A stretch of DNA of 64,000 bases, taken from positions 134,843 through 198,842 of the forward strand of contig NZ_VCNC01000001.1 in the NCBI RefSeq assembly GCF_006210265.1, given 5' to 3'. The notes beneath the pieces were generated by a model. That model saw nothing but the letters and a program-made list of their open reading frames with translations. It was not told the origin of the DNA and did not search any database. Shown piece by piece: positions 18,975 through 46,266 of this stretch. The position numbers and the translations under genes were made by a program. How positions within the stretch are numbered: the stretch's first letter is position 1; every line of letters begins with the position of its first letter. The stretch comes from Desulfovibrio sp. UCD-KL4C. Lineage in GTDB: Bacteria; Desulfobacterota; Desulfovibrionia; Desulfovibrionales; Desulfovibrionaceae.

Positions 18975-19397
18975 CTAAAGCCATTCCCCAGTTCTCATTT
19001 GCAATGCCAATTCCTCTGCCCGTGATTCGACCTGTCCGGCCCAATCGGAATTGAGCATTTCGGAGGCAGCAAGTTCGTAGTTACCGCCCGCACATGCTGC
19101 GAGCATTTTTTTAAATTTACTGAACCCGTTGAAACCGAGATTGAAACACATGTTGATAAGTACTGCGCGGCGGGGATCACTGAGGTTAGACGTCCAAGGC
19201 ATGGCGGTAGATAATTCGGCTGAACATTCCGATACATCATGGGAGAGCATGGTCATCGCTTCTAGTTCGGTGATTCCGACATCTTCCAGATTGCGGCCGA
19301 CTCCGATGGTAAGTTTTCCGGCTGGGCAGCGATAAGGTTTAAGTTTTAAGCCCTCGTGTTTTAAAAGCTGTTTTTGTAAACGTTCTGCAAAGTCCAT
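18975..19397 (-). CDS. Phage lysozyme (T4-type, GH24)
   Basis: This 140-aa endolysin cleaves peptidoglycan. The catalytic glutamate is E15 in 'KHEGLKLKPYRCPAGKLTIGVGRN'-type sequence, which is the GH24 active-site block. The aspartate of T4 lysozyme is replaced by Cys (RCPAG), a known natural variant in this family. 'AVLINMCFNLGFNGFSKFKKML' is the conserved C-terminal block. There is no signal peptide, so release depends on the adjacent holin. The ATG at 19397 is preceded by GGAGGTC and seven T; the Shine-Dalgarno sequence lies inside an inverted repeat. Confidence 0.95.
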   Translation of the reverse strand: MDFAERLQKQLLKHEGLKLKPYRCPAGKLTIGVGRNLEDVGITELEAMTMLSHDVSECSAELSTAMPWTSNLSDPRRAVLINMCFNLGFNGFSKFKKMLAACAGGNYELAASEMLNSDWAGQVESRAEELALQMRTGEWL

Positions 19398-19404
19398 AAA
19401 AAAA

Positions 19405-19441
19405 GACCTCCATTTGCAATTGTGTTGCGTTAATAGAGGTC
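19405..19441 (-). promoter_or_regulatory. Inverted repeat covering the lysozyme Shine-Dalgarno sequence
   Basis: On the minus strand GACCTC (19441-19436) can pair with GAGGTC (19410-19405), the latter being part of the lysozyme ribosome site. The second arm is followed by seven T and then the ATG. The stem is only 6 bp around a 25-base loop. It could occlude translation of the lysozyme on transcripts reading in from upstream, or act as a weak intrinsic terminator of the pentapeptide genes. Confidence 0.45.
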
Positions 19442-19508: not shown

Positions 19509-21545
19509 TTATCTGCGGAGTTTGTTGCGGAGGGCGAAGGCGAAGAGGGCTGCTTGGATGGTTACAAGAAGGTTGTAGAACACTTTAAAAAAATAGTTCC
19601 AGTCAGAAATATTGGCGCAGGTGAGTTTTATTTTAGTAAGAGGAAGATACCACAGCCAACGGGAAACTAAGTGTGTGTTGTCTTTAAAAATGTCGCCGCA
19701 TAGTGTGAATTCATAGAACGGTCCGAAATAAAAGGCGGTTAGTAAAGGACAGAGAATAAACAAAAATAAGAAAGCAAAAGCTTGAAGAGGTTCTTCTCCA
19801 TATCCACTTATGGCCCAATAAATGTTGTTAATGGCCCTTAAAAAAAGGGTTCGCAGAGAAGTTAACTTGTTTTCATAATGCAGCCTTTTTCTGAGCATTT
19901 CTTTTTCTTTATAGTGCCAAGCAGATGCTAATATTTCATCATTGTTGTCACGGGATATTTTTTTAAGGCGGCGGTAAATTTCTTCTAGCTTTAAGAAGTT
20001 ATTTTCTTTTTTTAAATTCAGTCTTTCATCATAAATTACTTTTCTGCCTTTTAGTTCAGGCCATGTACATTCTATAAATTTGAATGATTCAATATTTGTT
20101 TCAGTGAAAAGGAGTTTTGAAAGTTCGGAATTTTCAATCAAAATTGTTTCTTTTGAAATAGTCCCGGCAAAAGACGTGTTCATGTTAAAAACAACATTTC
20201 TGAAATAAGTCCATTCCTTAAAGAGAGCATGTTTAAAACTTGTTTTCCCGTAAAACTCTGTTCCTTCAAAATTTGAGTATTCGTGGAAAATGGTTTCGGT
20301 AAATGAGGTCTCTTCTAAAAACCATGCCCCAGTAAAAATTGCATATTTTTGAAAGTTCATACTATCAAAATGTACCGTTCCAAAAGTAGAATCGTTAAAA
20401 ATTATTTTTTTTCGAGATTCAGCATTTATAAAATTTGCACCCGCAAAGCATGTTTCCTGAAAAGAAGCCACCCCCCGGAACTGGGTTCTCTGAAAATCAG
20501 TCATCTCCCGGAACTGGGTTCCATTAAAATTAGCCCACCCCCGGAACTGGGTTCTCTGAAAATAAGTCAGCCCCCGGAACTGGGTTCTCTGAAAATCAGC
20601 CAGCCCCCGGAACTGGGTTATCTGAAAATAAGCCCCCCCCCGGAACTGGGAGTCGTAAAAATAAGCCACCCCCCGGAACTGGGAGTCGTAAAAATAAGCC
20701 CCCCCCCGGAACTGGGAGTCGTAAAAATAAGCCACCCCCCGGAACTGGGAGTCGTAAAAATAAGCCACCCCCCGGAACTGGGTTCTCTGAAAATAAGCCA
20801 CCCCCCGGAACTGGGTTCTCTGAAAATTAGCCTCCCCCCGGAACTGGGTTATCTGAAAATTAGCCTCCCCCCGGAACTGGGTGCCCTGAAAATAAGCCAC
20901 CCCCCGGAACTGGGTTCTCTGAAAAGAAGCCACCCCCCGGAACTGGGTTCTCTGAAAATCAGTCATCTCCCGGAACTGGGTTCCATTAAAATTAGCCCAC
21001 CCCCGGAACTGGGTTCTCTGAAAATAAGTCAGCCCCCGGAACTGGGTGCCCTGAAAATTAGCCATCCCCCGGAACTGGGAGTCGTAAAAAACAGCCACCC
21101 CCCGGAACTGGGTTCCATTAAAATTAGCCCACCCCCGGAACTGGGTTCCATGAAAATCAGCCCCCCCCCGGAACTGGGTTTTAAAAAAATTAATTGGAGG
21201 TAAATACGTTCCATTTTCCTCATTAAATTTAGAAAATGAAATATCAGTAAAAAAAATAGTTCCGGCAAGATTACACCGAGGATTCCAATTGGAATATTTG
21301 TATCTATCTCGCTCTTCATCCTCCCCCGCATCTATAACCGCCTGTATCCGAGCAAAAACCAACGCATTAAAATCATCACCAGAAATCAGCTCTGGCCGCG
21401 GACCTTCCCCCTCTACATATCGCTCAGAGTACTTATGCTCAGCAGGAGCATGAAAGATGCAATATTCTTTGCCTTCGTCGTCAACATAAACAATGTCGTA
21501 ATCTTTGCACCAGTTATTATGTTCAGCCCCAACGTAACAAGCCAT
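19509..21545 (-). CDS. Membrane-anchored pentapeptide-repeat protein 1 (hypervariable repeats)
   Basis: This 678-aa protein has three parts. Residues 1-35 hold a Cys/His set (C3, H9, C13, C28, H31: 'MACYVGAEHNNWCKDY...YCIFHAP') that could bind a metal. Residues about 120-500 form 11-residue repeats of two pentapeptides plus one residue ('AYFQR-TQFRG-V'), about 22 of them nearly identical. The C-terminus has a conserved 'LEEIYRRLKK...ASAWHYKEKE' block and two membrane segments (about 587-608 and 653-672), ending 'FAFALRNKLRR'. The repeats should form a quadrilateral beta-helix exposed in the cytoplasm. It is one of three paralogues in tandem, placed as prophage cargo. The function is unknown; an effect on superinfection or the host envelope is a guess. 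Confidence 0.85.
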   Translation of the reverse strand: MACYVGAEHNNWCKDYDIVYVDDEGKEYCIFHAPAEHKYSERYVEGEGPRPELISGDDFNALVFARIQAVIDAGEDEERDRYKYSNWNPRCNLAGTIFFTDISFSKFNEENGTYLPPINFFKTQFRGGADFHGTQFRGWANFNGTQFRGVAVFYDSQFRGMANFQGTQFRGLTYFQRTQFRGWANFNGTQFREMTDFQRTQFRGVASFQRTQFRGVAYFQGTQFRGEANFQITQFRGEANFQRTQFRGVAYFQRTQFRGVAYFYDSQFRGVAYFYDSQFRGGAYFYDSQFRGVAYFYDSQFRGGAYFQITQFRGLADFQRTQFRGLTYFQRTQFRGWANFNGTQFREMTDFQRTQFRGVASFQETCFAGANFINAESRKKIIFNDSTFGTVHFDSMNFQKYAIFTGAWFLEETSFTETIFHEYSNFEGTEFYGKTSFKHALFKEWTYFRNVVFNMNTSFAGTISKETILIENSELSKLLFTETNIESFKFIECTWPELKGRKVIYDERLNLKKENNFLKLEEIYRRLKKISRDNNDEILASAWHYKEKEMLRKRLHYENKLTSLRTLFLRAINNIYWAISGYGEEPLQAFAFLFLFILCPLLTAFYFGPFYEFTLCGDIFKDNTHLVSRWLWYLPLTKIKLTCANISDWNYFFKVFYNLLVTIQAALFAFALRNKLRR
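20460..21186 (-). repeat. 33-bp minisatellite inside pentapeptide gene 1, with nine-base G tracts
   Basis: About 22 tandem 33-bp units (11 codons) are nearly identical, each with the core GGAACTGGG on the plus strand. A block of roughly 120 bp starting at 20458 recurs at 20920, exactly 14 units apart, showing internal duplication. Runs of nine C on the plus strand (G on the coding strand) occur at 20633-20641, 20699-20707 and 21161-21169, within codons for Arg-Gly-Gly. Such tracts and near-identical units favour slippage and unequal recombination, so both unit number and reading frame could vary. Confidence 0.92.
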
Positions 21546-21610
21546 ATGTGAACTCCTGAGATTTATCTGGTAGTATTAAATTTGTAATTAACTTCGGGTT
21601 GTAATTGTTT

Positions 21611-23557
21611 CTATCTTCGTAGTTTGTTGCGGAGGGCGAAGGCGAAGAGGGCTGCTTGGATGGTTATGAATAAACGCCAGAAGCCCTGAACCAGAGTAGC
21701 CAAACTTGGAAGCTCTGAACTTGTTTTTATAATTGGTAAGTAGTTTATGGAATTTTTTAGCCAAATAGGATCATAGCTATTCAAGGATTCGGGAGGAATA
21801 AAAAAAGGAGTAACGATAAAAATGAGTAACCAAATAAAAGCCCGAAGAGGTTTTTCTCCAAAGCCACTGAATAGGTAATAAAGCCCTAGATAAATTAACT
21901 TAAACCAATTGCTTGGTTCCTCTCTTAAGTTGTTAAAGGATGTTTTAAGTAAACACTTTTTTTCCCTGTAATGCCACGATGAGGCTTGGATCTGATCTGA
22001 ATTGTTAACGGCCAATCGTTTGAGCCTTCGGTATATTTCTTCGAGTTTAGCAGGGCTTGTGTCATTTAGTTCATCATATATTGGGCCATATTTATTTTTT
22101 CCCCAATGGCATCCGATAAATTTAAAAGATTCAATATTAATGTTAGTAAACTCCATTCCTGAAAGGTCAACATCATCACCTTCAATTAATATAGTTTTTT
22201 CGCAAATTGTATCTTCAAAGGATATTTTACGACCAAAAGTAACATTTCTGAAATAAGCCCAACTGTCGAATGTGGTGTCTTTTATGGTCAAGTCGCCAGG
22301 GGTTATAAAAGCCGCATGATTAAAATTTGCTGCCATTTTAAAAGAGCAATTATCAATTTTCAAACTTGTATAAAACAGCGTCATATCGTTGAAATATGCT
22401 TGTTTTTCAAAAAAAACACAAAAAAACAACGCTTCATTAAACTTGGACCCAGAAAAATGAACACGGTCGTTAAAATTTATTTTCGTAAATTCAGCTTTTT
22501 TAAATTTAGAATTAAAACATTGTAAAGGCCCATTTATATCAACTTCTTCAAATTTAACATTACAATCAAAATCAACATTAGAAATATCGACTGTATCTTT
22601 GAATACAGTCTTTCTAAATATGCTTTCTGCATTAAAAACTGTTATTCTTTTGTCATATTGAATTTGAGAAAAGTTCACTTCAGCATAAAAAATAGTTTTT
22701 TCAAATGTTGCTTCTTGTTTAAAAAATGAACTTTGAAATGAAGTGTAACCTTTAAATTTAACATTATGGAAATCGATAGGCCCCTTAAAGTCACACTCTT
22801 CAAAGTATGCAACTCCTAAAAAATCAACATTTGAAAAACTGATAGGCATTTGAAAGCTTGCTAAGTCATCATTACAAACCGTTTGATTAAATACCGCAGC
22901 TGAATGGAATTTACTCCCATTAAAAGTTATACGTGCACATAACTTAGACTCTTTAAATTTAGCTACATCATGAAATTCAACACCTAAAAACGAGGTGGTT
23001 GCAAAAAACATAGCATTATTAAAGAATGCCCCTTTAATAAATTGCGTCTGCTCAAAACAAGCACTCTGCGTAAAAGTACAATTCTTAAAATAGCTATCCA
23101 ATTCAAATGTGCATTTAAAATTACATTCACCATTAAATGTAGCCGCGTCAAAAAGCGCCTTCCCTTTAAATGTTGTCCTATTAAAAGATGAGCAACCATT
23201 TAATCTACACCCATTGAAAGATGCTATTCCCTTAAAAAGGCAATCGTTAAAATTTAAAGACTCCAATATTTTGTCGGTGTTACATAGTGAAAAATTAATG
23301 TCATACGGAAAAATGGTCCCAGAAAGGTTGCATTCAATATATTCATTCTGTTGCTGACTTCTATCTGCATACGAATTTGCTATGGAAAAAACTAGATGAT
23401 TAAATTGCTCAGCAGTTACTTTGGGGCCGTTTTTATGTCTATACTTATGATCAGATGGGGCATGAAAAACACAATACTCATTTCCCTCTTTATCTATATA
23501 TACAATATCATGCACCTTACACCAATGATCATGCTTAGCCCCAATACAACAAGCCAT
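21611..23557 (-). CDS. Membrane-anchored pentapeptide-repeat protein 2
   Basis: The start is placed at 23557 (MACCIGAKHDHWCKVH), matching the start of paralogue 1 and with AGGGGTGG just upstream; an in-frame start lies 18 bases earlier. The product is about 648 aa. The N-terminal Cys/His set is conserved (C13, C28, 'VFHAP'). The middle has 11-residue pentapeptide units ('FNGCRLNGCSS', 'FNRTTFKGKAL'), but these are diverged, unlike paralogue 1. The C-terminus keeps 'LEEIYRRLKRL...ASSWHYREKK', two membrane segments and 'FAFALRNKLRR'. Codon use is AT-rich compared with the phage late genes, suggesting separate acquisition. The function is unknown. Confidence 0.85.
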   Translation of the reverse strand: MACCIGAKHDHWCKVHDIVYIDKEGNEYCVFHAPSDHKYRHKNGPKVTAEQFNHLVFSIANSYADRSQQQNEYIECNLSGTIFPYDINFSLCNTDKILESLNFNDCLFKGIASFNGCRLNGCSSFNRTTFKGKALFDAATFNGECNFKCTFELDSYFKNCTFTQSACFEQTQFIKGAFFNNAMFFATTSFLGVEFHDVAKFKESKLCARITFNGSKFHSAAVFNQTVCNDDLASFQMPISFSNVDFLGVAYFEECDFKGPIDFHNVKFKGYTSFQSSFFKQEATFEKTIFYAEVNFSQIQYDKRITVFNAESIFRKTVFKDTVDISNVDFDCNVKFEEVDINGPLQCFNSKFKKAEFTKINFNDRVHFSGSKFNEALFFCVFFEKQAYFNDMTLFYTSLKIDNCSFKMAANFNHAAFITPGDLTIKDTTFDSWAYFRNVTFGRKISFEDTICEKTILIEGDDVDLSGMEFTNINIESFKFIGCHWGKNKYGPIYDELNDTSPAKLEEIYRRLKRLAVNNSDQIQASSWHYREKKCLLKTSFNNLREEPSNWFKLIYLGLYYLFSGFGEKPLRAFIWLLIFIVTPFFIPPESLNSYDPIWLKNSINYLPIIKTSSELPSLATLVQGFWRLFITIQAALFAFALRNKLRR

Positions 23558-23673
23558 ATAACCACCCCTAAACAAAATATTATTTCTAAGATCAAAGGCT
23601 TGTACTATAATTCATTGTAATTAATCTAGAGGTATGGTGGGGATGAATATTTATGAAGCGTTACACGTGAGAA

Positions 23674-23710
23674 TCCCTCTATTAGCAATTGTTTTATGCT
23701 AGTAGAGGGA
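23674..23710 (-). terminator. Terminator-like hairpin after pentapeptide gene 3
   Basis: The arms TCCCTCTATTAGCA (23674-23687) and TGCTAGTAGAGGGA (23697-23710) pair over 14 bp with one G-T wobble and a 9-base loop. It lies 6 bases past the stop of the third pentapeptide gene, in its direction of transcription, and is followed by a modest T-rich stretch. This suggests that the three genes are separate transcription units or are partly attenuated. Confidence 0.7.
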
Positions 23711-23716
23711 CTTTGT

Positions 23717-25459
23717 TTATCTGCGAAGTTTGTTGCGGAGGGCGAAGGCGAATAGGGCTGCTTGGATGGTTATAAGTAAATGAAAAACACCTTTCCAGAA
23801 GTAATTCCAGTCAGTAATACGAGCTCCTTCAATCTGAGAGTTAATGAAAGGCAAATACCATAACCATCGCGAAACTAGTGTAATATGATTGGACTCCCAA
23901 GAAAAATATTTGCTTTGATAAGATGGTCCCCATAAATATGAAATACCAATTGGAAGAACTACTGCTACAAGTAGGACCAATAAAGCTCTAAAAGGCTTTT
24001 CACCGAATCCACTTAAAAAATAGTATAAGAATAAATAAATGGTTTTTATAACATTTGAAAAAGATTTAAATATGTTGATAAAACTATTTTTAAGGGCGAA
24101 TTTTTTTTCTTTGTAGTGCCAGTCTGAAGCTTGTTCTTGGTCTAAATTGGTGAGAGCGCTTTTTTTTAACCTTCTGAAAATTTCTTCTAATTCACTAAAT
24201 GTCGATTTTACCTTTTCATCTTCATCGCATATTAATTTATTACCCCAAAAATCGTAATCCCAATCACATTGAATAAATTGAAATGATTCAATATTCACAT
24301 TTCTTAATGGTAGCGCTTTTAGACTGGCATTTTGTATAATTATTTTGTTGTTTGAAATAGTGTCATTAAAACAAACTTTTTTAATAAAAGTAGCATCTCT
24401 AAATATAGCTGAAGATTTAAAATAATTCCTTTCAATAAAACAATCATCTTCAAATATTGTATTGTTAAATATCGCTTGTAACTCGAAATAATTTTCCAAA
24501 CATGAAAATGTAGATTTAGATATTAATTGTGAAAAATCAGTGTAATTTTCAAAAATATTATTATGTATATCTATCTTATATATTTCAGAATTTCTTATTC
24601 TTACATGTGAGTTAAATTTACATTTACTAATTTTCAAATAAGATTTTACAGAATTTTTATTAGTTATAATATACACATTTTCTTTAAATAAACAGTTCTC
24701 AAATACAAATTGATCACTAAATGAACAACTACAAGAAAATGAACGATTGAATTCAGTATGTCTGAAAACTAGAAGAGCATTAAAATTCTTCTTGCTACAT
24801 TGTCCTTCTAAGATATTAAATTCTTTTAAAAAGGTAGCTCCAGAAAAAATTATTCCCATGGAAAAAGAACAACCACTAATAAATACATTCTCATTAAAAG
24901 TAGCTTCGGAAAAATCAATTAATAATTGGGAATTTTCAGAATTTATTTTTTTTACACAATCTATGGTTGTTGTATGATTAAATAATAGTAGTTGATTAAA
25001 AATAGATCCATTAAAACTTGTATAAGCATTAATTATACAGTCTTCAAAAATTAAATAATTTTTGAATTCAAGATTGCTAAATAATATTTGTGAATTAAAT
25101 TCACAGTTTTCGAATTTTAAAGGAGGAATAAAAAACAAATCGTTTTTATTAAAATTTATTCCTCCTGAGTATACTAGAGATAACGTTTGATCTTGTTGGT
25201 TATTTAAAGAGTCAACATATTTTATATATGCATCTTTAAAAAGATCTATAGAAAAATCAAAATTGAAAATACAGTTACTAAACAAACATTCTTTTGTAGC
25301 TTGTTTTAATAACGCAACAGTATCAATGTCCTTGTAGTATTCTGGATGCTTAAGTATTCCATCACGTAAATCTAATTTACTATATACATTTTGAAGAGTT
25401 TCAATGACTTCATCCCACGTTTTTATATTACGTTTAATATCTCTGAATTCTTCGTTCAT
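23717..25459 (-). CDS. Membrane-anchored pentapeptide-repeat protein 3
   Basis: This 580-aa paralogue lacks the N-terminal Cys/His module and opens 'MNEEFRDIKRNIKTWDEVIETLQ'. The middle (about 60-400) shows spaced 'F...F' units such as 'FENCEFNSQILFSNLEFKNY' that fit degenerate pentapeptide repeats with insertions. The C-terminus is the shared module: 'LEEIFRRLKKS...ASDWHYKEKK', membrane segment around 475-500, 'RWLWYLPF', second membrane segment and 'FAFALRNKLRR'. It is the most AT-rich gene of the trio and lies nearest the early operon, so it would be transcribed first. The function is unknown. Confidence 0.85.
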   Translation of the reverse strand: MNEEFRDIKRNIKTWDEVIETLQNVYSKLDLRDGILKHPEYYKDIDTVALLKQATKECLFSNCIFNFDFSIDLFKDAYIKYVDSLNNQQDQTLSLVYSGGINFNKNDLFFIPPLKFENCEFNSQILFSNLEFKNYLIFEDCIINAYTSFNGSIFNQLLLFNHTTTIDCVKKINSENSQLLIDFSEATFNENVFISGCSFSMGIIFSGATFLKEFNILEGQCSKKNFNALLVFRHTEFNRSFSCSCSFSDQFVFENCLFKENVYIITNKNSVKSYLKISKCKFNSHVRIRNSEIYKIDIHNNIFENYTDFSQLISKSTFSCLENYFELQAIFNNTIFEDDCFIERNYFKSSAIFRDATFIKKVCFNDTISNNKIIIQNASLKALPLRNVNIESFQFIQCDWDYDFWGNKLICDEDEKVKSTFSELEEIFRRLKKSALTNLDQEQASDWHYKEKKFALKNSFINIFKSFSNVIKTIYLFLYYFLSGFGEKPFRALLVLLVAVVLPIGISYLWGPSYQSKYFSWESNHITLVSRWLWYLPFINSQIEGARITDWNYFWKGVFHLLITIQAALFAFALRNKLRR

Positions 25460-25555: not shown

Positions 25556-25987
25556 TTACCCTATCTCAACCTTTTCCATCTGCTCCCTAACACTCTCCGC
25601 AGTAACCCGAAACGGCAATTCAATGTGCCTGTTCAGTTTACCTTCTTCCGCCATCTTATATACAGTTCTAGGCTTAACATTCAGACAAAAAGCCGCCTCA
25701 TCAGCTCTTAACAGGTGCTTGCGACTCACCATTTCATAAGGCGATAAATCATACTTCTTTTCTGATTTTACGGTGGGTAATACAATCTGAAACCCCTCAA
25801 TACTTTTAGGCGTGCAACGCTCATTGCAACCCAAACAATGCAGAATAGGCCAGTTGCAAACCCAGTAAGCACGAGCAGGATTGGAGCACCCGAGGCGTTT
25901 ATAAACATCTTGCTCAATAACTCCGTTGTACTGCTCAAATCCATCAGCCAGCATTTTTCTAAGTGTGCGGCAAAGCGTGCTGTTCAT
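25556..25987 (-). CDS. Phage regulatory protein with a MerR/excisionase-like helix-turn-helix
   Basis: This 143-aa protein has a Cys-rich N-terminal half ('CNWPILHCLGCNERC', possible metal site) and a C-terminal DNA-binding domain, 'LLRADEAAFCLNVKPRTVYKMAEEGKLNRHIELPFRVTAESV', typical of HTH_17 excisionase-like folds. It is the last gene of the early operon, followed only by the cargo and late genes. In Mu the middle and late activators Mor and C occupy this zone, so it may be the late-gene switch; that is inference from position. It overlaps the next gene upstream by four bases. Confidence 0.6.
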   Translation of the reverse strand: MNSTLCRTLRKMLADGFEQYNGVIEQDVYKRLGCSNPARAYWVCNWPILHCLGCNERCTPKSIEGFQIVLPTVKSEKKYDLSPYEMVSRKHLLRADEAAFCLNVKPRTVYKMAEEGKLNRHIELPFRVTAESVREQMEKVEIG

Positions 25988-38134: not shown

Positions 38135-38431
38135 ATGAGCGCGAAACGAAGTGAGTGGATTAATCTCAGAGTCACGCCGGAAGAAAAAAAGAACGTAGCA
38201 TCTAAAGCTGAAGCAAGAGGAATGAGCACTTGCGATTTTGTGCGCCAGAAATTGGGAAAGCCGCGTGTTCGTAAAACCAGACGTGAAAGGGAGAAGCTGC
38301 TTCATATTGCTCGTATCGGAAACAATCTTAACCAGCTTGCTCGCTGGGCAAATACTTATAAAAGCAATGCAGATTCAATTTTGATTCTCGCTGAACTTGC
38401 AGCAGTCGAAAAGGAATTGAAATGTATATGA
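38135..38431 (+). CDS. mobC: Mobilization accessory protein MobC (MbeC-like)
   Basis: This 98-aa DNA-binding protein has a ribbon-helix-helix-like N-terminus ('EWINLRVTPEEKKNVASKAEARGMSTCDFVRQKLGKPR') and the MobC hallmark 'LLHIARIGNNLNQLARWANTYK'. MobC proteins bind the oriT and help the relaxase open the strands. It follows the candidate oriT, has GGAGGGAGT before the ATG, and overlaps the relaxase start by 10 bases. Length and order match MbeC upstream of MbeA in ColE1. Confidence 0.92.
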   Translation: MSAKRSEWINLRVTPEEKKNVASKAEARGMSTCDFVRQKLGKPRVRKTRREREKLLHIARIGNNLNQLARWANTYKSNADSILILAELAAVEKELKCI

Positions 38432-39858
38432 AGGTTTTCCCATATGGAAAAGGAAATGGAACTGAGGCCATAAATTATGTCCTTGATCCGAAACGAGATG
38501 GGCGCGAAGAATCCCCTCCCGAAGTTCTGCGCGGAGATCCAGAAATTGTACAACGAGTGATCGGTTCAACTGACCGTGTCTGGAAATACACTTCCGGCGT
38601 TCTTTCTTGGTCGCCAGAAGATGAAATTTCACCACGAACTGAAAAAGAGGTCATGGACGATTTTGAAAGAGTGGCCTTCGCAGGCATGGAACCGGATCAG
38701 TATTCCATCCTTTGGGTTCGGCACAGTCATGCCGGACATCCTGAGTTGCACTTTATTATTCCTCGAACGGAACTCAGGCAGGATAAAGGCATGAATCCAT
38801 GTCCTCCCAACTGGCAGAAACAATACGACGTTTGGCGCGACCTTTGGAATGAACGTAAGGAGTGGGCAAAGCCTGATGATTTGAAGAGGTCTCGGCTTAC
38901 ACAGCCGGGAAAAGATATGCATTCCCCAAAGGGGAAGCAGCTAAATGATTTTCGTAAAACAGTAACTGACTACTTGGTTCAAGGTATAACTGACGGATTG
39001 CTTAGGGATAGGAATGATTTGGTGAAGGCTCTCGAAGAGGTCGGTTACGCCGTACCGAGGCAGGGTAAGAAATATATTACCTTGGAGTTACCAAAAGATA
39101 AAAAGCGTGCTCGACTTAAAGGAGGAATATATGAATCATCTTGGAGATCTGACAGAGAAATTAAAAGAGAAGATGGACTCACGGTCTCAGGAGGCCGAGC
39201 AAGCCGCCAAGAACGTATTGGAAGACTTGAGCGAGAACTTGCTGAAATATGCCGAAAGCGAACTGAATACCATCATCAGCGATATGGACACCCATCTTCA
39301 GAAGCTAAGGAAAAAGCAATCCAAAATCTCAGCGTATCACTGGAAGCAAAACATTTTGGCAAACATTATATCCGCTCTGCTTCTAATCGTAATCTCAGTC
39401 TGCATAACCGGATACTTCGGTTTGCGAATTCAAGACCGCAGCGAGGCGTTGAGTCAACTCACGGCCAAGGTTTCAAGTTTGAAGAAACAAGAAAGCCAGC
39501 TCAAGAATTGGGGAATCACAATGCACCAGCAGAGCAATCAAAGATTTCTGGCCTTCCCAAAGGGAACGAATCTGGAAATAGTAAAAACATCAAACGGCGA
39601 TCCAGCTGTTTTACTACAGAGGTAGATTATGAACGAGTTAAGTCAGAGCTTATCGGAGAGTCTGGAACGGATGGAAAAAGCACAGAAAGAAAGATTGGAA
39701 CAGCAAGACCAGCGGATAGCCGAGCTGGAAAAGGAAGTGCAGGGTTGCCAAGACTTGCAGAGCGAATTGGACGGTGTGTTGAGAGAATTGGAAAATTTGT
39801 TTCCAAAAAATTTACAAAGAACAAGCAAAAAACAATAAGTAAAATGAAACTACGCTAG
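38422..39858 (+). CDS. mobA: Relaxase MobA (ColE1 MbeA-like)
   Basis: This 478-aa relaxase nicks oriT and pilots DNA. The N-terminal domain shows the usual opening ('MYMKVFPYGKGNGTEAINYVLDPKRDG') with Tyr near residue 19 as a possible nucleophile. The metal motif at 100-115 is 'RHSHAGHPELHFIIPR': H101, E108 and H110 have the H-E-N spacing of ColE1 MbeA but with His in place of Asn. 'RTELRQDKGMNPCPPNW' follows, as in the MbeA family. The C-terminal ~230 residues are low in motif content because that DNA also encodes MobB and MobD in another frame. Conjugation machinery is absent, so the element needs a helper. Confidence 0.92.
   Translation: MYMKVFPYGKGNGTEAINYVLDPKRDGREESPPEVLRGDPEIVQRVIGSTDRVWKYTSGVLSWSPEDEISPRTEKEVMDDFERVAFAGMEPDQYSILWVRHSHAGHPELHFIIPRTELRQDKGMNPCPPNWQKQYDVWRDLWNERKEWAKPDDLKRSRLTQPGKDMHSPKGKQLNDFRKTVTDYLVQGITDGLLRDRNDLVKALEEVGYAVPRQGKKYITLELPKDKKRARLKGGIYESSWRSDREIKREDGLTVSGGRASRQERIGRLERELAEICRKRTEYHHQRYGHPSSEAKEKAIQNLSVSLEAKHFGKHYIRSASNRNLSLHNRILRFANSRPQRGVESTHGQGFKFEETRKPAQELGNHNAPAEQSKISGLPKGNESGNSKNIKRRSSCFTTEVDYERVKSELIGESGTDGKSTERKIGTARPADSRAGKGSAGLPRLAERIGRCVERIGKFVSKKFTKNKQKTISKMKLR
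39131..39625 (+). CDS. mobB: Mobilization protein MobB, nested out of frame in mobA
   Basis: This 164-aa frame lies wholly inside mobA and starts at the ATG at 39131 behind a strong AGGAGGA. It has the layout of ColE1 MbeB: a helical, coiled N-terminus ('LTEKLKEKMDSRSQEAEQAAKNVLEDL'), then a clean membrane segment at about 75-98 ('ILANIISALLLIVISVC' type) and a soluble tail. ColE1 MbeB (172 aa as I recall) is also nested in mbeA. It anchors the relaxosome to the membrane. The ribosome site, membrane segment and family match show that it is a real gene and not a shadow. Confidence 0.88.
   Translation: MNHLGDLTEKLKEKMDSRSQEAEQAAKNVLEDLSENLLKYAESELNTIISDMDTHLQKLRKKQSKISAYHWKQNILANIISALLLIVISVCITGYFGLRIQDRSEALSQLTAKVSSLKKQESQLKNWGITMHQQSNQRFLAFPKGTNLEIVKTSNGDPAVLLQR
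39629..39838 (+). CDS. mobD: Mobilization protein MobD, nested out of frame in mobA
   Basis: This 69-aa coiled-coil protein ('SLSESLERMEKAQKERLEQQDQRIAELEKEVQGC') starts 3 bases after the mobB stop, with GAGG before its ATG, and ends 20 bases before the mobA stop. It matches the size, coiled-coil character and nested position of ColE1 MbeD, which is reported to act in entry exclusion. It supports a complete ColE1-type mobCABD block. Confidence 0.8.
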   Translation: MNELSQSLSESLERMEKAQKERLEQQDQRIAELEKEVQGCQDLQSELDGVLRELENLFPKNLQRTSKKQ

Positions 39859-45546: not shown

Positions 45547-46266
45547 CTATTTTTCCAACACTTCAACCGCCCTTCGCAATCCCTCCGGCGAAAGGTGACT
45601 ATACCGCTGAGTCATCTTGAAATCTTCATGCCCCATTAATTCCTTTACGCTGTAGAGATCTACACTACGCTGAACCAACCATGAGGCGAAGGTATGTCTT
45701 AGGGTGTGAAAGCATACTCGAAGGCGCACGTCTTTGATCCCTTCATTGAACATGGGATCTACTATTTTGCTAAATACATTTGATATACTGGACATTTTTT
45801 CGCCTGTGGTGGACGGGAAAACTAGATCTGAGTTTTGGACATTATGTTTTGCGCGGCGATTTGAAAGCATCACGACTATATCTTCCAGTAAATATGCTTG
45901 GCGGTTAACCTTCCCTTTCGTGTCTCTGATTGAGGTCAGCTTTTCGGCAAGGTCAATGTCATTCCATGTTAGGGCTGCTATTTCTCCGAAACGTAAGCCG
46001 CAACGCAGGGCAAGTAAGGCCATGTCGTGAGTATGGCCGCCGTGTTGTTTAAGTTCAGCAAGTAAGGTTTGAACTTCTTCAGGTGTGAGAAAGCGTTCCC
46101 GGCGGTTGTCTTGCTTGGGAATTGATATTTGCTGAGTAGGACTGTTGCCGTGGACATAGTTATCTCGGCGAGCTTGATTCCAGAGTTGGGAAATAACAGC
46201 GAAGACGTATCTGATGGTTGAGGATGCCCGTTTCTTTTTGAGCAGGGCGTTTGAAATGCTACATAA
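45547..46266 (-). pseudogene. Tyrosine recombinase (integrase), N-terminus lost at the IS junction
   Basis: The frame runs open from the IS boundary (about 46266) to 45547. It includes part of the core-binding domain ('RASSTIRYVFAVISQLWNQARRDN') and the complete catalytic domain: R in 'LRCGLRFGEIAALTW', 'HTLRHTFASW' (H-x-x-R), 'GHEDFKMTQRYSHL' (His and the Tyr nucleophile). The N-terminal arm-binding region and the start codon are missing; sequence beyond the IS does not continue the gene. Internal ATGs would give only the catalytic domain. It was probably the integrase of this element and is now inactive. Confidence 0.85.

What the first reader, a model, noticed from the sequence alone, without database searches (positions are those of the whole stretch)
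19509..25459. Three tandem membrane-anchored pentapeptide-repeat proteins as prophage cargo
The genes at 19509, 21611 and 23717 share a C-terminal module (LEEI.RRLK, a DWHY/AWHYKEK-like block, two membrane segments, final FAFALRNKLRR) but differ in the repeat domain, and two carry an N-terminal Cys/His set. They lie between the early and late operons of a Mu-like prophage and are far more AT-rich than the phage genes. This looks like a multi-copy variable-domain/constant-anchor system. A role in superinfection exclusion, host conversion or defence is inference. I know of no described system with this exact plan.
Basis: partly seen in the sequence, partly recalled or inferred. Interest (0 to 1): 0.8.

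Follow-up and report, generated by a model that had tools for sequence, protein, structure and literature searches.

The report
Prophage-carried pentapeptide-repeat channel-like membrane proteins
A Mu-like prophage in a Desulfovibrio-type bacterium carries three related membrane proteins, each a variable beta-helix joined to a constant module that resembles an anti-phage ion channel, in a slot where related prophages carry phage-defence genes; what they do is untested.

Summary
Three full-length genes (19509-21545, 21611-23557, 23717-25459, minus strand) encode pentapeptide-repeat beta-helices with a shared C-terminal membrane module, between the last early gene and the lysozyme of a Mu-like prophage. 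Corrections: gene 1 is not AT-rich (GC3 0.44, like the phage). The genes are not one recently duplicated cassette: gene 1 and genes 2/3 fall in different subclades. The family is not prophage-specific: it occurs in 45 of 199 Desulfovibrionaceae genomes, mostly as single chromosomal genes, but also inside Mu-like prophages at a second site, in a P2-like prophage and beside other phage genes. New here: (1) in related prophages the slot is empty or holds known or predicted defence genes (RmrA, retron VI reverse transcriptase, DndC, Ppl-like); (2) the C-terminal module, modelled alone, is a TM1-short helix-TM2 unit whose best PDB match is HalA, the Hailong anti-phage channel (Foldseek probability 0.99), followed by cation-channel pores; (3) arrays are hypervariable and carry long G tracts, with the own chromosomal copy broken at G11 where its orthologue has G10 in frame. 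Best reading: single-gene, variable-sensor, channel-type phage-defence or exclusion proteins carried as prophage cargo. Anatomy is firm; function is inferred.

The parts
19509..21545 (-). Gene 1: N-terminal C/H motif, 22-unit pentapeptide (11-residue) array, C-terminal 2TM module, 678 aa
21611..23557 (-). Gene 2: same plan with a divergent repeat domain, 648 aa (the listed TTG start is 23575)
   Evidence: model
23717..25459 (-). Gene 3: no N-terminal C/H motif, weakly matching repeats, same C-terminal module, 580 aa
   Evidence: C-terminal model
19512..20093 (-). C-terminal module of gene 1: helical hairpin, TM1, short helix, TM2
21614..22144 (-). C-terminal module of gene 2
23720..24283 (-). 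C-terminal module of gene 3, modelled alone; top PDB match HalA
20457..21180 (-). 33-bp tandem array of gene 1, 22 units in perfect register, with a 129-bp exact internal duplication (20457-20585 and 20919-21047)
21161..21169 (-). G9 tract in the array (further G9 tracts at 20699-20707 and 20633-20641)
21438..21545 (-). N-terminal C/H motif of gene 1 (MACYVGAEHNNWC...YCIFHAP), putative metal site
23450..23557 (-). N-terminal C/H motif of gene 2
23672..23712 (-). Strong hairpin just after gene 3 (-20.9 kcal/mol, z -5.8), no T run
19405..19441 (-). Hairpin plus T7 directly before the lysozyme ATG: conserved edge of the cargo slot
25556..25987 (-). Last early gene (HTH, phrog_33310): upstream edge of the slot
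18975..19397 (-). Phage lysozyme: downstream edge of the slot

Best explanation
The three genes are paralogous accessory (moron) genes in a variable cargo slot of a Mu-like prophage. Each encodes a cytosolic beta-helix (a variable sensing or binding surface, with a small putative zinc knuckle in genes 1 and 2) coupled through a helical hairpin to a two-helix, pore-helix-containing membrane module resembling the HalA ion channel. The most likely job is single-gene phage defence or superinfection exclusion: an infection signal felt by the beta-helix opens, or stops holding shut, a small channel that depolarises the membrane or stops growth. Shown: anatomy, slot, family spread, array variability, G tracts. 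Predicted: beta-helix, 2TM fold, likeness to HalA. Inferred: channel activity, defence role, sensing by the beta-helix, phase variation.
For: Slot: between the HTH gene 25556-25987 and lysozyme; related prophages are empty there (L109/L130, L134) or hold RmrA (1.1e-74, L132), retron type VI RT (5.6e-79, L149), DndC (1e-120, L139) or a Ppl-like protein (2.9e-28, L133); conserved slot edge. Recurrent phage carriage: directly after a gpG homologue in Mu-like L068/L151, L152, L077 and L094; in P2-like L095; near baseplate genes in L063, L086, L093. Fold: model of gene 2 gives a beta-helix, hairpin and two long C-terminal helices; the C-terminal module alone has HalA 9nyi as top PDB hit, probability 0.99, with the next hits at 0.28 or less; VIA-align gives cation-channel pores at Z 6-8 and HalA at Z 6.8 over 155 residues, the longest match. 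HalA is described as the ion channel of the Hailong anti-phage system (PMC13275509). No signal peptide was noted and the C-terminus is RNKLRR, so the beta-helix is probably cytosolic (positive-inside rule; inference). Variability. G tracts of 9 or more are about 27-fold enriched in these genes.
Against: No function has been tested. HalA is not found by sequence, and no HalB-type nucleotidyltransferase lies in the cargo; the only PF01909 hit in the genome is in an 856-aa frame on another contig. The C-terminal model rests on 7 sequences and pLDDT 72; Z under 8 may mean only a common arrangement. Most copies are chromosomal. Enrichment of defence genes next to them is not significant (about 9 of 128 near, 4 of 128 far, p 0.25). 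No PADLOC, PHROG or NCBIfam family matches the three proteins.
Confidence: 0.42

Rival explanations
1. Prophage morons with a channel-like or membrane-anchored stress function unrelated to phage, for instance osmotic or metal-ion response, that help the lysogen as host-conversion genes.
For: Most copies are single chromosomal genes, some at conserved loci such as selB-katA/murA; putative metal-binding N-terminus; channel-like module.
Against: Patchy distribution (45 of 199 genomes), anomalous composition in GC-rich hosts (GC3 0.31-0.45 against 0.84-0.93), hypervariable arrays, and a slot shared with defence genes all fit conflict genes better.
Confidence: 0.25
2. Superinfection-exclusion factors that act only as membrane anchors: the beta-helix binds an incoming phage protein or DNA near the inner membrane, without any channel activity.
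For: Two TM helices and a large probably cytosolic beta-helix; prophage cargo position.
Against: The short helix between TM1 and TM2 and the HalA and cation-channel matches point beyond a plain anchor, but only by prediction.
Confidence: 0.15
3. Topoisomerase-protecting or DNA-mimic pentapeptide proteins (Qnr/MfpA type) that happen to be membrane-anchored.
For: The beta-helix matches HetL, QnrB1, EfsQnr and AlbG.
Against: Those relatives lack a C-terminal membrane module (general knowledge), and the fold match is generic: tailspikes score as high.
Confidence: 0.06
4. Surface antigens or adhesins undergoing phase variation.
For: Hypervariable array and G tracts.
Against: No N-terminal export signal was noted, the N-terminus is Cys-rich, and the positive C-terminus suggests that the repeat domain is inside the cell.
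Confidence: 0.04

Closest known systems
HalA of the Hailong anti-phage system (PDB 9nyi; Tan et al. 2025, doi 10.1038/s41586-025-09058-z, not held; described in PMC13275509)
   Same: The C-terminal module takes a similar predicted fold: Foldseek probability 0.99, 204 columns, 19% identity, TMq 0.46; VIA Z 6.8 over 155 residues.
   Different: No detectable sequence relation, no HalB nucleotidyltransferase next to it, and the sensor part here is a long pentapeptide beta-helix.
Pentapeptide-repeat proteins (Pfam PF13576/PF00805; HetL, AlbG, QnrB1, MfpA)
   Same: Repeat signature over the Pfam cut-off in all three; predicted beta-helix matches HetL at Z 18.5 and QnrB1 at Z 16.7.
   Different: Membrane-anchored with a C-terminal 2TM module and, in genes 1 and 2, an N-terminal C/H motif; 11-residue (33-bp) units in gene 1.
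Prophage cargo slots carrying defence genes (the P2/P4-type hotspot idea; the reference is from memory)
   Same: One conserved site between two phage modules with unrelated accessory genes in related prophages, several matching PADLOC families.
   Different: Here in Mu-like prophages of Desulfovibrionaceae at the early/late boundary, with pentapeptide-repeat membrane proteins as occupants.
Contingency genes with homopolymeric G tracts (Campylobacter or Neisseria type, from memory)
   Same: Long G tracts in the coding strand that differ between orthologues (G9, G10, G11), one copy out of frame.
   Different: Within-population switching not shown; comparison only across species and assemblies.

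Membership tests
Pentapeptide-repeat superfamily | Pfam pentapeptide model above its curated cut-off | tested here: met
   PF13576: 235.8, 121.6 and 31.3 bits against 27
Pentapeptide-repeat superfamily | Beta-helix fold | tested here: met
   Model of gene 2, mostly pLDDT 85-98 over residues 100-480; HetL Z 18.5
Hailong (HalA) | HalA-like ion-channel module | tested here: inconclusive
   Foldseek probability 0.99 but E 0.03; VIA Z 6.8 over 155 residues; model pLDDT 72
Hailong (HalA) | Detectable sequence homology to HalA | tested here: not met
   Profile searches of PDB sequences do not return 9nyi
Hailong (HalA) | Adjacent HalB nucleotidyltransferase | tested here: not met
   Only the three ORFs lie in the slot; the only PF01909 match in the genome is in an 856-aa frame on another contig
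Hailong (HalA) | Gating by oligodeoxyadenylate | not testable with these tools
   Needs biochemistry
Mu-like prophage moron | Located inside an otherwise recognisable prophage and absent from the same site in relatives | tested here: met
Anti-phage defence or superinfection exclusion | Protects cells from phage | not testable with these tools
   Only guilt by position and fold; neighbour test in other genomes not significant
Phase-variable contingency locus | Hypermutable tract whose length changes the reading frame between close relatives | tested here: inconclusive
   Same locus: G10 in frame (L054), G11 out of frame (L008); enrichment p 2e-6, or 0.008 without the window array and L100; reads not available
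Qnr/MfpA gyrase inhibitors | Soluble protein that is beta-helix only | tested here: not met
   Two membrane segments at the C-terminus

The most novel reading that the evidence does not exclude
A previously undescribed single-gene anti-phage family: a pentapeptide-repeat beta-helix sensor with recombining, phase-variable arrays, wired to a HalA-like pore, mobilised by Mu-like and P2-like prophages in defence slots and stacked in tandem so that one lysogen carries several sensor variants on the same effector.
Probability: 0.3. Interest if true: 0.85.

Novelty: new variant of a known kind. Interest (0 to 1): 0.62.

Why it matters
If true, it would give pentapeptide-repeat proteins, a very common bacterial class with few known functions, a role as sensors of channel effectors in phage defence, would extend the HalA type of effector beyond the two-gene Hailong system, and would mark a cargo slot in Mu-like prophages of sulfate reducers as a place to find new defence genes. 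The constant-module and variable-array design makes the sensing question directly testable by array swaps in laboratory strains.

Tried and rejected
PADLOC, PHROGs and NCBIfam scans of the three proteins: nothing. tblastn against 50,697 phage records: no match. PLSDB plasmids: only distant pentapeptide proteins at 20-30% identity. IMG/VR with the first three-row alignment: nothing; it worked only with the 47-row C-terminal profile. Pfam on 47 C-terminal modules: no consistent family. PDB sequence searches: no relevant hit. Systematic test of defence genes near (<2.2 kb) and far (>5.5 kb) from the chromosomal copies: about 9 and 4 of 128, p 0.25, so defence-island clustering is not claimed, though single loci lie beside Cmr, Cas10, type I methylase, retron RT, MkoC or an Avs4-like gene. 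Recent triplication: rejected by the tree. AT-richness as a mark of prophage cargo: rejected. The G093 prophage (90% identical transposase) cannot inform on the slot because its contig ends just after it, in what looks like an insertion sequence. Papers: none found that links pentapeptide-repeat membrane proteins with prophage exclusion; TM-linked pentapeptide repeats are mentioned in a conflict-system survey (PMC12419801).
Full report
Observation. Alignment shows an invariant C-terminal block in all three and a C/H-rich N-terminus in genes 1 and 2 only. Each has two hydrophobic segments at the C-terminus and pentapeptide repeats above the Pfam cut-off. Gene 1 holds a 22-unit, 33-bp array in perfect register with a 129-bp exact internal duplication 14 units apart. 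The element is a Mu-like prophage with a MuA-type transposase, GemA, DUF3164, a phage lysozyme, a GTA-type holin and a terminase.

The slot. The genes lie between the HTH gene 25556-25987 and the lysozyme. In a complete related prophage (G149, L105/L106) gene order is the same, but the site holds one unrelated 301-aa membrane protein on the other strand. In L109/L130 and L134 it is empty; in others it holds RmrA with a partner (L132), a retron type VI reverse transcriptase with an HTH gene (L149), DndC (L139, at a contig end), a Ppl-like PHP-AAA protein (L133) or Ppl fragments (L131). L139 and L149 are more distant prophages (E25556 homologues at 43% and 35%). The 3' edge of the slot is a conserved hairpin followed by TTTTTTTATG of the lysozyme gene in the window, L105, L109, L130 and L132. 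The slot is therefore a cargo site at the early/late boundary, often used by known or predicted defence genes. The pentapeptide genes were found in this slot only in the window.

Family spread. A profile of the three proteins hits 45 of 199 Desulfovibrionaceae genomes; the C-terminal module alone hits 21 of 395 genomes across the phylum, in many families. The own genome has a fourth copy at a chromosomal locus (selB-[gene]-perR-katA-murA-comEC, L008) that is shared with L009/L052, L050, L054 and L062. A second group sits between gatA/dnaK-side and his genes (L057, L058, L060, L065, L066), and L064 lies beside pheT. So the genes are not prophage-specific. They do ride phages repeatedly: in Mu-like late operons directly after a gpG (neck/virion morphogenesis) homologue in L068 (same prophage as IMG/VR contig L151), L152, L077 (two tandem copies) and L094; in a P2-like prophage beside tail gene D in L095; and near baseplate genes in L063, L086 and L093. 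Tandem pairs occur elsewhere only in L077 and L099.

Evolution. In a tree of 47 C-terminal modules, gene 1 groups with L049 (a mobilisable element in G007) and L009 (99/94 and 95/94 support), and genes 2 and 3 with L064 (96/96); the own chromosomal copy groups with L054. The triple was thus assembled from diverged paralogues. Within the gene 1 group the ends are conserved and the array is not (74% / 40% / 87%). Genes of this family are AT-rich relative to their loci in nearly all hosts, with GC3 0.31-0.45 against 0.84-0.93 for housekeeping genes in GC-rich hosts, which suggests frequent transfer.

G tracts. Runs of nine or more G or C occur 7 times in 92 kb of these genes and 3 times in 1,065 kb of flanking DNA (p 2e-6; p 0.008 without gene 1 of the window and L100). 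At the selB locus, orthologues have G9 (L050, in frame), G10 (L054, in frame) and G11 (own copy, L008, out of frame at the tract). This is what a contingency locus looks like, but an assembly error or plain decay in L008 is not excluded.

Structure. AlphaFold of gene 2 (6 sequences, mean pLDDT 79.9) gives a beta-helix over residues ~100-484, a helical hairpin (502-544), and long helices at 570-586 and 619-647. Its PDB matches are pentapeptide proteins (HetL Z 18.5, QnrB1 Z 16.7) and generic beta-helices such as tailspikes; the first Foldseek row is HalA, though without a good global superposition. The C-terminal module of gene 3 alone (pLDDT 72) shows hairpin, TM1 (97-118), a short helix (129-142) and TM2 (158-187). 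Foldseek puts HalA first with probability 0.99 and no other chain above 0.28. VIA-align lists SthK, MthK, NaK, Kir and KcsA pores at Z 6-8 over 75-90 residues, and HalA at Z 6.8 over 155 residues, covering nearly the whole module. The Z values are modest and the tool warns about helical arrangements, so this is a lead rather than proof. HalA is the channel of the Hailong system, blocked by poly-dA made by HalB (PMC13275509). No HalB candidate is adjacent, and sequence searches do not find HalA, so this is not a Hailong system.

Function. Slot company, repeated phage carriage, hypervariable arrays and a HalA-like module together favour a channel-type defence or exclusion protein. The independent test, enrichment of defence genes around the chromosomal copies, was not significant, although striking single neighbours exist. 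I put the defence/channel reading at 0.42, a non-defence host-benefit channel at 0.25, and an anchor-only exclusion protein at 0.15.

Noticed in passing
L008:7889-9680 (own genome, contig C6): A fourth family member at the selB-katA locus is frame-broken at a G11 tract after a 10.7-unit, 33-bp array; the orthologue L054 has G10 in frame.
   Followed up: yes
L132, L133, L139, L149 (slot of related Mu-like prophages): RmrA, Ppl-like, DndC and retron type VI genes sit in the same early/late slot: a defence-gene cargo site in Mu-like prophages of Desulfovibrionaceae.
   Followed up: partly
L105:12066-12971: A 301-aa two-TM protein without Pfam or PADLOC match occupies the slot in G149; distant homologues occur in three places of two to three genomes.
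   Followed up: partly
window 38135-39858: MobC/relaxase-like genes are 75% and 69% identical to those directly beside another family member in G149 (L061:7115-8604), so a mobilisable element seems to lie right of the prophage.
   Followed up: no
window 45547-46023: A short integrase-like ORF has homologues next to family members in L063, L067 and L075, and within 8 kb in L061, L093 and L096.
   Followed up: no
L055, L059, L075: Family members lie beside type III CRISPR genes (Cmr6/Cmr4; Cas10) in three genomes.
   Followed up: partly
L049:11409-15257: A 1282-aa protein with an Avs4-like N-terminus is divergently adjacent to the closest relative of gene 1.
   Followed up: no
window 20349-21203, plus strand: A 284-aa open frame on the opposite strand of the repeat array, probably an artefact of the 33-bp unit.
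   Followed up: no
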